A stretch of 64,000 bases of DNA from an uncultured Aquimarina sp. (GCA_947496355.1 CANMCO010000003.1:434001-498000), one strand, 5' to 3'. Shown: positions 25,230-33,202, numbered from the stretch's first letter. Made by a program: numbers and translations. Notes: generated by a model not told the origin, from the sequence alone.

Positions 25230-26156
25230 TTAATTGTTTGCTTTTTTATCTTCTTCTTCCTTCTCTTTCAGCTTCTTCTTTTTGTGTTTTCCAAATTGAA
25301 ACGCTCTCGAAATATTAAACCCAAGATGTACATCACCTTCAAAAAAATTATCTGTAGATTCTGTAATAAAGCTTTTTTCAATCATGGTTATAGAGTTGGA
25401 TAAAATGATCTGAAATACATGCCCACCGGTTTCTATGTCAACCCCAAAAGCTAAAGAATTTGTAGCATCTATAGATTCTAGAGGATTCACGGTATAATGA
25501 TATTCTCCGTTTATTGAAATCCTTTGGGTCAATTTTACTCTGCTACCAATACCAATTGCAAAAATTCCATGAGGATCTTCATTAATTTTTACAGAATTTC
25601 TATGAATGTAACTTGGCGTAATTTGTAATGAAAATCCCGGACTAAATTTTCTAGCGATTAATACCTGTGTGGTATAAGACAAACGCTCATTAAAACTAGG
25701 TTCATTTCCTGGTTCAAAGTCATCTATACTTCTATACGCTGCGCTTCCAAAAAGAGAAATAGAAAATGGAAACGAATTTTTATCCGTACTTTGTTTTAGT
25801 AATTTGTATTTAAAAAAACTGTCATATGTTTTTTCAAAACTACTTCTACCGATCCCTACCATGAGGTTGTCTGATAATCCATATTCAAATGCAAAACGAA
25901 TGTTTGATTGGTCTAATCCATATAGTTCGTCTGCACCTAAGTTTACTCTTCCAAAACGATGTGATATCACAAATTCTAATATTCCTTTCTTTCTATTTTC
26001 GATAGAGTGTCCATTAAGGATTCTGGTTCCTTTAAAGGTAGAAGAGACATATTCTTTTGTTTTAGGTGTTTCTTCCTCCAAAATATCCAATAGATCTTGA
26101 GAAAACGAAGGTGAACTTATTGCTAATACAGCAAAAACAATTAAAAAATTCTTCAT
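25230..26156 (-). CDS. DUF5777-like outer-membrane beta-barrel protein (module A)
   Basis: Signal peptide; ILNGHSIENRKKGILEFVISHRFG...; clear paralogue of 32279..33202. Confidence 0.75.
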   Translation of the reverse strand: MKNFLIVFAVLAISSPSFSQDLLDILEEETPKTKEYVSSTFKGTRILNGHSIENRKKGILEFVISHRFGRVNLGADELYGLDQSNIRFAFEYGLSDNLMVGIGRSSFEKTYDSFFKYKLLKQSTDKNSFPFSISLFGSAAYRSIDDFEPGNEPSFNERLSYTTQVLIARKFSPGFSLQITPSYIHRNSVKINEDPHGIFAIGIGSRVKLTQRISINGEYHYTVNPLESIDATNSLAFGVDIETGGHVFQIILSNSITMIEKSFITESTDNFFEGDVHLGFNISRAFQFGKHKKKKLKEKEEEDKKANN

Positions 26157-26157
26157 G

Positions 26158-26703
26158 TTATTTTTTATAAGGTTTGTGATCTAATTCAAATGTTACTTCT
26201 ACAGTTTCAGCGATGTTGTTTATAACCACAGATGGGATCTTGATTTTAAAATCGGCCACAGTTATAGGAAAAATACCTGTTAACGATATATTTTCTTCAG
26301 TTCTAACTATTTTTGCTTGTGTTTCTATTTTTTTAGTTACGCCATGAATGGTAATGTCACCATGTATAGAAACCAATTGTTCATCATTGCCTAAGTTTTT
26401 GAAATTTGCAATTTGCCCCTTAAAAATTGCTTTTGGGTATTTGTCTGATTCTACGTAATTCTCATTAAAGTGTTCTTGCATTAATGATTTTTCGAACATA
26501 AAGGATTTCATCAAAATCGAAATTGCGATGGCTCCTGTTGATGTGTCTATTATGCTTAATACCTGATTGTTATCAGCTTTGATATCCTCTACAGGAGAGC
26601 TGGAGAAAAATGAAGTAAATCCTTGTTTGGTTAAGAATTTTTCTTGTCCGTTCATGAGTGCCGAAAAGAAGAAACAGCATAGTAATATATGTAGTGATTT
26701 CAT
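26158..26703 (-). CDS. YceI-family protein (module A)
   Basis: SIDG/lipocalin-like pattern YPKAIFKGQIANF...VSIHGDITIHGVTKKIE; paralogue of 31756..32304. Confidence 0.88.
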   Translation of the reverse strand: MKSLHILLCCFFFSALMNGQEKFLTKQGFTSFFSSSPVEDIKADNNQVLSIIDTSTGAIAISILMKSFMFEKSLMQEHFNENYVESDKYPKAIFKGQIANFKNLGNDEQLVSIHGDITIHGVTKKIETQAKIVRTEENISLTGIFPITVADFKIKIPSVVINNIAETVEVTFELDHKPYKK

Positions 26704-26744
26704 GTGTGTGCTTTTTTGTTGTTTATATGATCGAGTAATTACTA

Positions 26745-27170
26745 CTAATTAATAATTACACATTTTACGAGTATTACATCCATCAGGTATCCTGTGCAAA
26801 TACCTTTTATAGTAATAGATTGCCCTTTTTCTAATGCCGTCATTTTTTCGTTTTCCTTTGCAGATAAATGACACATAATGTTTCCGAATGAATCTTTATT
26901 ACCTAGTGTTACTATTCCTTTACCTTTGGATACACTCAATTCTGATATAGTACCACTTACCTGAATTATTTGTTCAAGGTATTTTGAGTTTGCCAGGTTT
27001 TCATCATTTTCAAAATCATCTAATAAAGTTTTAGATGCCAGAGATATATTTGGTGAGGATTTAGCAACATCTGTATGTGGCTTGTTGTATAAAGACATAC
27101 TGATTAATGTACCAACCAAAACAATGATTAGTATAGAAATGATTATTTTGATTCTAGCTTTTCTAGTCAT
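26745..27170 (-). CDS. Membrane-anchored OB-fold (tRNA_anti-like) protein (module A)
   Basis: TM anchor then QVSGTISELSVSKGKGIVTLGN...KGQSITIKGICTGYLMDVILVKCVI; start probably internal MTRKARIK. Confidence 0.75.
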   Translation of the reverse strand: MTRKARIKIIISILIIVLVGTLISMSLYNKPHTDVAKSSPNISLASKTLLDDFENDENLANSKYLEQIIQVSGTISELSVSKGKGIVTLGNKDSFGNIMCHLSAKENEKMTALEKGQSITIKGICTGYLMDVILVKCVIIN

Positions 27171-27181
27171 TGCATTATTTT

Positions 27182-31205: not shown

Positions 31206-31214
31206 CAACTATAA

Positions 31215-31260
31215 AAACAGCACCACTTGTTAAAATCTGGAGTATACTTTGGTGCTGTTT
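31215..31260 (+). terminator. Hairpin after the cupredoxin gene (terminator or attenuator)
   Basis: AAACAGCACCA ... TGGTGCTGTTT, 11-bp stem. Confidence 0.65.
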
Positions 31261-31325
31261 AAATTATATTTTATAAATTCAAATTTGGAGTATTCCTGAT
31301 ATGGTTTGTTTCTTAGATATTACGT

Positions 31326-31763
31326 ATGAATAGAAAAAATAAAATAGTATTGTTTCTTTTGGGTCTATTTATAGTCGCTAGTCTTTATGTATATTTTGGA
31401 ATATATTATCATTCCTATATTGATATTGAAAAGGTTTCAGCCGAAGTTGAAATTAGCTCAGGAGAGCTTACATCGTTTTTTATCTTGAACGAAAAATCTG
31501 CAAATTCAATATATAGAGGTAAGGTTATCGAGGTAGAAGGTATTGTTAAAGAGGTTACTTTTTTAAATAATAGAAATACAGTATTATTGCAAGGCGATAC
31601 CAAGTATTCTAGTGTAATATGTGATATGCGATCAAACCAAATTGAAGAAATCAAAAAACTCAAACAAGGTCAAAAAATAAAAATCAAAGGAGTTTGCAAA
31701 GGGTTTCTTAAAGATGCTATACTGCTAAATTGTATGCTGATTAATAAAAAAAGCAATGAATAA
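31326..31763 (+). CDS. Membrane-anchored OB-fold (tRNA_anti-like) protein (module B)
   Basis: VEGIVKEVTFLNNRNTVLLQG...KKLKQGQKIKIKGVCKGFLKDAILLNCMLIN; paralogue of the module A protein. Confidence 0.75.
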   Translation: MNRKNKIVLFLLGLFIVASLYVYFGIYYHSYIDIEKVSAEVEISSGELTSFFILNEKSANSIYRGKVIEVEGIVKEVTFLNNRNTVLLQGDTKYSSVICDMRSNQIEEIKKLKQGQKIKIKGVCKGFLKDAILLNCMLINKKSNE

Positions 31764-32304
31764 AATTATTGGTATAATCTTTCTTTTGATGAATTTTACT
31801 GACTTTGACGTAAAATCAGATCAATTTATAACTCGTCAGGGGCAAGTTTCTTTCTTTTCTTACACTTCTGTAGAGAATATAGAAGCAAAAAATAATCAAG
31901 TACTAAGCATTATAGATTTTTCTAAAAATGAAATAGCTGTAAGTATGCTTATGAATGCATTTGTATTTAAGAAGTCATTAATGCATGAGCATTTTAATGA
32001 AAGCTATATTGAGTCGGACCTATATCCAAAAGCCACTTTTGAAGGTAGTATTTTGGATTTTGATCCCTTAGCTACTGAAACACAAACCAAAATAATTAAA
32101 GGAGAACTAACTATACATGGAATAACCAAAGAAATTGAAATTAAAACGACTATTGAAAATAACAATGGTACGTATCTGTTGAATGGAGATTTTGAATTAA
32201 TTGTCAAAGATTTCGATATCAAGATCCCACCTATCTTAGCACCCAATATAGCTAAAATTATATCTGTAAAATTTAGATTTGAATATCAGCCGTATGAAAA
32301 ATAA
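31756..32304 (+). CDS. YceI-family protein (module B)
   Basis: YPKATFEGSILDF...KGELTIHGITKEIEIK; overlaps the preceding gene by 8 nt. Confidence 0.88.
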   Translation: MNKIIGIIFLLMNFTDFDVKSDQFITRQGQVSFFSYTSVENIEAKNNQVLSIIDFSKNEIAVSMLMNAFVFKKSLMHEHFNESYIESDLYPKATFEGSILDFDPLATETQTKIIKGELTIHGITKEIEIKTTIENNNGTYLLNGDFELIVKDFDIKIPPILAPNIAKIISVKFRFEYQPYEK

Positions 32305-33202
32305 CACACTTTTTCTTTTATGCTTTTTTATATTGATGGGCTTCAGTACTTCAATTCATGGTCAAGATTTACTTGAAACTTTAGAAAAAGAATACCCGGA
32401 TACGCCGCAGTATGAAATCGCAACATTTAAATCTACTCGTATTTCGATAGGGCACTCTGTAGAAAATCGCAAAAAGGGGGTATTAGAAATAATGGCAATG
32501 AATAGGTTTTGGAATATCCCTAATTACGGAGGCCAAAGTTTTGTTGCCGATAAGCTTAGTTCCAGATTGGCATTAGAATATGGTATCTCTGACAGGCTAA
32601 CTTTTGGAGCTGGAGCAACTACTTTGGAAGGCATTTTTGATGGCTTCCTAAAATATAAACTTATAAGACAACGCAAAAGTAAAGGAGGTTCTCCTTTTAG
32701 CGTTACACTTTTTCAAAATACATCATACAGAAGTGAACGTAATGAACCTTTTGTTGATATAAACCTATTTGATGACTTTACAGATCAACTGGCATTTACA
32801 AGTCAGGTTTTAATTGCTCATAAGTTTACTCCTCAATTTTCGTTACAAGTATCTCCAACATTTATTCATAGAGGGTCCTCAGCGTTTGAGGAAGATCCTC
32901 ATAATCAATTTGCCATAGGAATTGGTGGAAGATATAAGTTAGGAGGGCATGTATCCATAGTTTCAGAATACTATTATTTGACAAACCCCTTAAAATCTAT
33001 TGATACATATGACGCCTTTTCGCTAGGTGTAAACTGGGAGTTAAGTGATGTGATGCTTCAATTTCAGTTAACCAATACCAGGAGTATGGTTGAAGATGCG
33101 TTTATTACCCAAACTCCTAATAACTTCAATTTTAAGGATGGAAACTTTGTTTTTGGTTTTAATGCGATTTTTGTATTGCATTTGAACCAGAAGAAACCAT
33201 GA
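32294..33202 (+). CDS. DUF5777-like outer-membrane beta-barrel protein (module B)
   Basis: Signal peptide from internal MKNNTLFLL; ISIGHSVENRKKGVLEIMAMNRF; paralogue of 25230..26156. Confidence 0.75.
   Translation: MKNNTLFLLCFFILMGFSTSIHGQDLLETLEKEYPDTPQYEIATFKSTRISIGHSVENRKKGVLEIMAMNRFWNIPNYGGQSFVADKLSSRLALEYGISDRLTFGAGATTLEGIFDGFLKYKLIRQRKSKGGSPFSVTLFQNTSYRSERNEPFVDINLFDDFTDQLAFTSQVLIAHKFTPQFSLQVSPTFIHRGSSAFEEDPHNQFAIGIGGRYKLGGHVSIVSEYYYLTNPLKSIDTYDAFSLGVNWELSDVMLQFQLTNTRSMVEDAFITQTPNNFNFKDGNFVFGFNAIFVLHLNQKKP

What the first reader, a model, noticed from the sequence alone, without database searches (positions are those of the whole stretch)
25230..33202. Divergent, duplicated OB-fold/YceI/DUF5777 modules with different redox lead genes
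Seen: the minus-strand order is c-heme lipoprotein, OB-fold protein, YceI, barrel; the plus-strand order is cupredoxin lipoprotein, OB-fold protein, YceI, barrel. The last three genes are clear paralogues in the same order (e.g. VSIHGDITIHGVTKKIE/KGELTIHGITKEIE; GHSIENRKKGILE/GHSVENRKKGVLE). Between them sit a PF03640-type lipoprotein and a membrane LytTR regulator. Known: YceI proteins bind isoprenoid lipids; cupredoxins and CXXCH proteins carry electrons. Inference: a modular envelope redox system in which the electron carrier (heme or copper) is swapped on a constant core, possibly under metal- or oxidant-responsive control.
Basis: partly seen in the sequence, partly recalled or inferred. 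Interest (0 to 1): 0.75.

Follow-up and report, generated by a model that had tools for sequence, protein, structure and literature searches.

The report
Envelope redox modules with swappable carriers
A marine Aquimarina bacterium carries two related gene sets for its cell envelope, apparently switched together through one DNA signal, and across the phylum the same core genes are paired with a heme, copper or iron-sulfur electron carrier, which points to an undescribed envelope electron-relay system, although its chemistry is untested.

Summary
Two divergent gene sets share paralogous OB-fold (31%), YceI (47%) and DUF5777 barrel (44%) genes, led by a CXXCH cytochrome lipoprotein on one side and a cupredoxin lipoprotein on the other. 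Across Bacteroidota the idea of a swapped electron carrier holds and extends. Of 87 YceI+DUF5777 loci, 80 have a carrier within 4.5 kb: 69 cytochrome c, 10 Rieske [2Fe-2S], 5 cupredoxin (four loci have two kinds). Rieske and cupredoxin each arose at least three times on the barrel tree. In this window the picture is subtler. The two sets are an old duplication, conserved as a divergent pair in 26 Aquimarina relatives, and the second set is normally carrier-less; the copper lead is shared with one close relative, although sister genera fuse the same copper domain to the PF03640 lipoprotein. New here: a 44-bp direct-repeat element (period 20 bp, LytTR-like) precedes both sets. A matrix trained on other species finds only four strong sites in the 5-Mb genome: three in this cluster and one before a lipoprotein triplet that sits inside the cluster in relatives. 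Best reading: a LytTR-controlled envelope electron relay around a quinone/lipid-binding YceI lipocalin. Composition and shared element are well supported; the chemistry is inferred.

The parts
24788..25219 (-). Last gene of set 1; thioesterase-like (4HBT_2, sub-cutoff); follows the barrel in nearly all Aquimarina relatives
25230..26156 (-). DUF5777 outer-membrane barrel of set 1 (12 strands predicted, pLDDT 93.5)
26158..26703 (-). YceI lipocalin of set 1
26745..27215 (-). Membrane-anchored OB-fold protein PF12869 of set 1 (ATG start likely 27170)
27182..27544 (-). Mono-heme c cytochrome lipoprotein (CISCH), carrier of set 1
27716..28570 (-). PF03640 (Lipoprotein_15) secreted-repeat lipoprotein; first gene behind the set-1 element
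28637..28680 (-). Direct-repeat element upstream of PF03640 / set 1 (33.8 bits)
28876..29090 (-). Candidate non-coding transcript (or relic) between the orphan element and an intrinsic terminator (28905-28882)
29129..29172 (-). Direct-repeat element with no protein gene behind it (29.4 bits)
29240..30367 (-). Membrane-anchored LytTR regulator, divergent from set 2 (ATG start likely 30352)
30482..30525 (+). Direct-repeat element in the LytTR / set-2 divergent promoter (36.9 bits)
30594..30703 (+). Degenerate copy of parts of the cupredoxin gene
   Evidence: sequence
30762..31205 (+). Cupredoxin lipoprotein (H-C-H-M ligands), lead of set 2
31326..31763 (+). OB-fold protein PF12869 of set 2
31756..32304 (+). 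YceI lipocalin of set 2 (closest solved fold BcnA 5ixh, TM 0.81)
32279..33202 (+). DUF5777 barrel of set 2 (ATG start likely 32294); lacks residues conserved in other barrels

Best explanation
A cell-envelope electron-relay system. A membrane-attached electron-carrier lipoprotein (c-heme here; type-1 copper or a Rieske [2Fe-2S] cluster in other lineages) passes electrons to or from a redox-active isoprenoid (menaquinone or an oxidised envelope lipid) held by the YceI lipocalin, next to a 12-stranded DUF5777 outer-membrane barrel that serves as channel or docking platform. The OB-fold protein is an inner-membrane-anchored accessory, seen with heme and copper carriers but not with Rieske. The likeliest purpose is protection or repair of oxidised envelope lipids and quinones, as for BcnA/LcoA in Proteobacteria, with the cytochrome b561 replaced by small carriers. 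In Aquimarina the set was duplicated, the second copy diverged, and both copies share a 44-bp direct-repeat promoter element that is most likely the operator of the membrane LytTR protein encoded between them. Shown by sequence: gene content, carrier exchange, duplication, shared element, folds. Inferred: electron flow, ligand, LytTR as the binder, purpose.
For: A carrier lies within 3 genes of 81/99 DUF5777 genes versus 1/112 distal positions of the same loci. 80/87 YceI+DUF5777 loci have a heme, Cu or Rieske carrier within 4.5 kb; Pfam confirms Rieske and plastocyanin leads. Rieske and Cu arose at least 3 times each on the barrel tree. DUF5777 without YceI sits with EB_dh, NrfD, 4Fe-4S and multiheme cytochromes. 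The YceI fold is nearest BcnA, whose relatives bind ubiquinone-8 and protect lipids from peroxyl radicals with cytochrome b561 (PMC9113575); b561 is absent from this genome. Element: a matrix trained on relatives gives only four hits of at least 29 bits in 5 Mb, next 21.4, Markov-null maximum 25.9. It recurs near PF03640 in 24/25 relatives, sites not used for training. Period 20 bp fits LytTR sites (9-bp repeats spaced 10-13 bp, PMC11347149). All 36 Aquimarina genomes with the element have the LytTR protein; 0/29 without LytTR have the element.
Against: No direct evidence for electron transfer between carrier and YceI, for the YceI ligand, or for LytTR binding. The element and the LytTR gene share a cluster, so their co-occurrence is not independent. 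Set 2 lacks a carrier in most relatives, so a carrier is not strictly required for a YceI+DUF5777 set. Seven of 87 sets show no carrier nearby. Some strong element sites precede surface lipoproteins with no redox domain, so the regulon may serve a wider surface programme. The neighbourhood sample is biased towards high-scoring barrels.
Confidence: 0.5

Rival explanations
1. An outer-membrane electron conduit for extracellular electron transfer: the DUF5777 barrel and the carrier lipoprotein move electrons across the outer membrane.
For: Barrels are linked to cytochromes even without YceI, and one such locus (L103) carries a hexaheme lipoprotein with a sub-cutoff MtrC-like match. Some neighbouring proteins carry type IX secretion tails, so they are surface-bound: cupredoxin and DOMON-type.
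Against: The barrel is predicted to have 12 strands, closest to NanC/FapF/OmpG, unlike the much larger MtrB-type barrels. The usual carrier is a 120-aa mono-heme protein, too small to span a membrane. Exchange with Rieske and copper proteins and the constant presence of a lipocalin are not explained.
Confidence: 0.12
2. A metal or heme handling system: the leads are metal or heme carriers, YceI carries a lipophilic ligand, and the barrel imports or exports a metal complex.
For: An HMA heavy-metal protein sits before the PF03640-cupredoxin fusion in Hyunsoonleella. One polyisoprenoid-binding YceI protein appears in the iron-limitation gene table of Riemerella anatipestifer (PMC5429918).
Against: Rieske clusters and covalently bound heme c are fixed cofactors, not cargo. 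Barrels without YceI are linked to NrfD/4Fe-4S respiratory-type genes.
Confidence: 0.15
3. Only a neutral tandem duplication: the copper gene beside set 2 is an incidental insertion and the two sets do not work together.
For: The copper lead is shared with only one close relative; a degenerate partial copy lies next to it.
Against: The divergent pair is kept in 26 relatives and both halves carry the same promoter element. In Poritiphilus, Hyunsoonleella and Jejuia the same copper domain, fused to PF03640, heads the second set.
Confidence: 0.1

Closest known systems
BcnA/LcoA (YceI lipocalin + cytochrome b561) lipid-peroxyl detoxification system (PMC9113575)
   Same: YceI lipocalin of the same fold (BcnA is the nearest solved structure) paired with a dedicated redox partner
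   Different: No cytochrome b561 in this genome; the partner is a small heme, copper or Rieske lipoprotein; an outer-membrane barrel and an OB-fold protein are added; LytTR-type element instead of the proteobacterial control
DUF5777 family (PF19089)
   Same: Both barrels are members (2.8e-96, 1.3e-75)
   Different: No paper in the held open library mentions DUF5777; its linkage to electron carriers appears undescribed there
LytTR membrane regulators such as CoxC (PMC11347149)
   Same: Membrane N-terminus plus LytTR DNA-binding domain; direct repeats two helical turns apart
   Different: No MHYT domain was found by Pfam and the signal is unknown; the repeat sequence (TTTYCCYTTT) differs
MtrCAB-type porin-cytochrome conduits
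   Same: Outer-membrane barrel with cytochrome lipoprotein
   Different: 12-strand barrel and a mono-heme carrier; no decaheme protein in the window set

Membership tests
YceI lipocalins (PF04264) | Sequence profile over curated cutoff | tested here: met
   57.3 and 50.9 bits vs cutoff 23.7
YceI lipocalins (PF04264) | Lipocalin fold | tested here: met
   Set-2 model pLDDT 93.1; the 21 best PDB matches are YceI proteins
YceI lipocalins (PF04264) | Bound isoprenoid or quinone | not testable with these tools
   Known for relatives (PMC9113575)
BcnA/LcoA system | Linked cytochrome b561 (PF01292) | tested here: not met
   No PF01292 match in the 5.03-Mb genome; controls ring. So it may work like BcnA/LcoA but is not a member
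c-type cytochromes | CXXCH heme motif | tested here: met
   CISCH in window 27182-27544
c-type cytochromes | Pfam cutoff | tested here: inconclusive
   PF13442 24.0 bits vs 27
Cupredoxins | Type-1 copper ligands H, C, H, M | tested here: met
   H87, C133, H136, M139 invariant in alignment A5
Cupredoxins | Curated profile match of the window protein itself | tested here: inconclusive
   None over cutoff; some homologues carry PF25489 or PF00127
DUF5777 barrels | PF19089 over cutoff and beta-barrel fold | tested here: met
   322 and 254 bits vs 23.1; 12 strands, set-1 barrel
LytTR regulators | PF04397 DNA-binding domain | tested here: met
   61.4 bits vs 22.6
LytTR regulators | Binding to a pair of direct repeats about two turns apart | not testable with these tools
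   Candidate site found with period 20 bp; binding not measured
MtrCAB-type conduits | Very large barrel plus multiheme cytochrome | tested here: not met
   12 strands; mono-heme carrier

The most novel reading that the evidence does not exclude
Bacteroidota possess a general envelope redox chain in which a lipocalin-borne quinone links the inner and outer membranes and three unrelated cofactor types (heme c, type-1 copper, Rieske 2Fe-2S) serve interchangeably as the electron partner of one lipocalin-barrel machine; in Aquimarina two diverged copies are run by one membrane LytTR sensor.
Probability: 0.3. Interest if true: 0.85.

Novelty: new variant of a known kind. Interest (0 to 1): 0.6.

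Why it matters
YceI proteins are widespread and known to bind quinones or isoprenoids, yet how they are reduced or reloaded is known only for the b561-linked type. This is a natural set of replacement experiments: the same lipocalin and barrel paired with three unrelated electron carriers, which makes the electron-relay hypothesis directly testable. It also gives a barrel family with no paper in the held library a functional context, and proposes a concrete operator and a small regulon for a membrane LytTR protein in Bacteroidota.

Tried and rejected
(1) A simple heme-to-copper swap in the window: rejected, because the second set is carrier-less in 25 of 26 relatives. (2) The copper lead as purely recent and incidental: weakened, because sister genera have PF03640-cupredoxin fusions heading the second set. 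(3) Carrier-less sets in the phylum sample: 10 of the first 17 were my own gene-calling misses, found by tblastn, so counts were redone with labelled reading frames; an early count of 22 label changes included these misses and is superseded by 7. (4) A DOMON profile built here drifted into YceI and was discarded. (5) PDB sequence searches with the single set-2 YceI, the cupredoxin or the OB protein found no relevant match; a YceI alignment did. (6) The barrel alignment gave no informative PDB sequence match, so fold comparison was used. (7) No Rfam family or tRNA in the window.

Full report
Observation. The window (Aquimarina; the closest named genomes are mostly of that genus) carries two divergent gene sets. 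Set 1 on the minus strand reads PF03640 lipoprotein, CXXCH cytochrome lipoprotein, OB-fold protein (PF12869), YceI, DUF5777 barrel, thioesterase-like gene. Set 2 on the plus strand reads cupredoxin lipoprotein, OB, YceI, DUF5777. A membrane LytTR regulator lies between them. Pfam assignments are; paralogue identities are 31, 47 and 44% for OB, YceI and barrel.

Is it conserved? DUF5777 occurs in 157 of 401 genomes drawn from the phylum. I fetched 100 barrel neighbourhoods and annotated them. A redox carrier lies within three genes of 81 of 99 barrels, against 1 of 112 positions at least eight genes away in the same loci. After correcting gene-calling misses, 80 of 87 YceI+DUF5777 loci have a carrier within 4.5 kb: 65 cytochrome c, 9 Rieske, 3 cytochrome plus cupredoxin, 2 cupredoxin, 1 cytochrome plus Rieske. 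Representative Rieske and plastocyanin leads pass their Pfam cutoffs. On the barrel tree Rieske and copper each change state at least three times. OB accompanies 32 of 68 cytochrome-type loci but 0 of 10 Rieske loci (p=0.004, not corrected for relatedness). The regulator is variable too: ECF sigma with a putative anti-sigma protein, Crp-like, FecR-type or LytTR. The sample favours high-scoring barrels.

The window in its genus. The divergent double set is present in 26 Aquimarina relatives. The tree places the two barrels as sister clades, the second on a long stem, so this is one old duplication. The copper gene is found in only one of these relatives (97% identical), so in most relatives set 2 has no carrier. 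In Poritiphilus, Hyunsoonleella and Jejuia, however, the second set is headed by a PF03640 protein fused to a copper domain; sequences were inspected for three such loci and the domain is about 60% identical to the window protein. This fusion ties PF03640 and cupredoxin together functionally, and an HMA heavy-metal protein precedes it in Hyunsoonleella. The set-2 barrel clade in Aquimarina has lost residues that are 93-99% conserved elsewhere (H66, G69, G80, L81, R104, T243-G-G-H246, R284) in all 35 sequences examined, which suggests a changed task.

Structures. The set-1 barrel is predicted with high confidence as 12-stranded, nearest to NanC, FapF and OmpG. The set-2 YceI is nearest to BcnA.

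A shared promoter element. The LytTR/set-2 intergenic region of relatives contains a conserved 44-bp element. A matrix from 23 relatives, with the window and its near-twin excluded, was run over the whole genome. Only four sites score at least 29 bits; the fifth scores 21.4, and a third-order Markov null of six 5-Mb strands peaks at 25.9. The sites are window 30482 (+, set 2), 28637 (-, PF03640/set 1), 29129 (-, no protein gene behind it) and C7:227259. The C7 site precedes three collagen-like lipoprotein genes whose homologues lie between LytTR and PF03640 inside the cluster in five relatives. In 24 of 25 relatives with PF03640 a site lies near the start of that gene, mostly 108-111 bp before it; those sites were not in the training set. 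Weaker versions precede the cytochrome genes of Hyunsoonleella, Jejuia and Poritiphilus. The element repeats with a 20-bp period, as expected for LytTR sites (9-bp direct repeats spaced 10-13 bp; PMC11347149). Across 76 Aquimarina genomes, all 36 with the element (E up to 1e-3) have the LytTR protein and none of 29 without LytTR has it; because both belong to one cluster this is supportive, not independent proof. Other sites precede surface lipoproteins and a stand-alone PF03640 gene.

Mechanism. In Proteobacteria the YceI protein BcnA works with cytochrome b561 (LcoA) against lipid peroxyl radicals, and YceI proteins have been found with ubiquinone-8 (PMC9113575). The window genome has no b561. 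The simplest model is that small heme, copper or Rieske lipoproteins take over as redox partner of the lipocalin, with the barrel as outer-membrane component. Linkage of DUF5777 without YceI to EB_dh, NrfD, 4Fe-4S and multiheme cytochromes supports an electron-transfer role for the barrel family. Direction of electron flow, ligand and physiological purpose remain inferred.

Verdict. It is not a clean heme/copper swap in this window. The added findings are the shared LytTR-type element and the deep conservation of the paired arrangement. No paper in the held library mentions DUF5777, and the three that mention YceI and Rieske together do so only once or twice each (not read).

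Noticed in passing
window 29172-28876 (minus): Element plus promoter-like sequence followed after about 200 nt by a strong intrinsic terminator and no reading frame: a candidate regulated small RNA or a relic. Similar units in L150, L135 and L142; folding z-score -4.4, which includes the terminator hairpin.
   Followed up: partly
window 30594-30703: Degenerate copy of parts of the cupredoxin gene just upstream of the intact one; also present in L150.
   Followed up: partly
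G000 contig C7:227259-229571: Triplet of collagen-like lipoproteins behind the best site of the element; in five relatives the triplet lies inside the cluster.
   Followed up: yes
L103, L113, L115, L119, L120, L125, L128, L130: DUF5777 barrels without YceI, beside EB_dh, NrfD, 4Fe-4S and (multi)heme cytochromes: an apparently undescribed respiratory-type cluster.
   Followed up: partly
L106, L126, L034, L073, L096, L109: Rieske leads with a twin-basic (Tat-like) signal and a lipobox-like cysteine, read by eye, unlike the Sec-type heme and copper leads.
   Followed up: no
L196, L203, L210, L213, L222: In Pontibacter/Rufibacter-type genomes a lipoprotein (CHRD domain confirmed for L196) sits between the putative anti-sigma gene and the cytochrome; in Hymenobacter that slot holds PF03640.
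   Followed up: partly
L045, L058, L066: Plastocyanin-like and DOMON-like proteins next to the set, L066 with a confirmed type IX secretion tail, suggesting surface-exposed partners.
   Followed up: no
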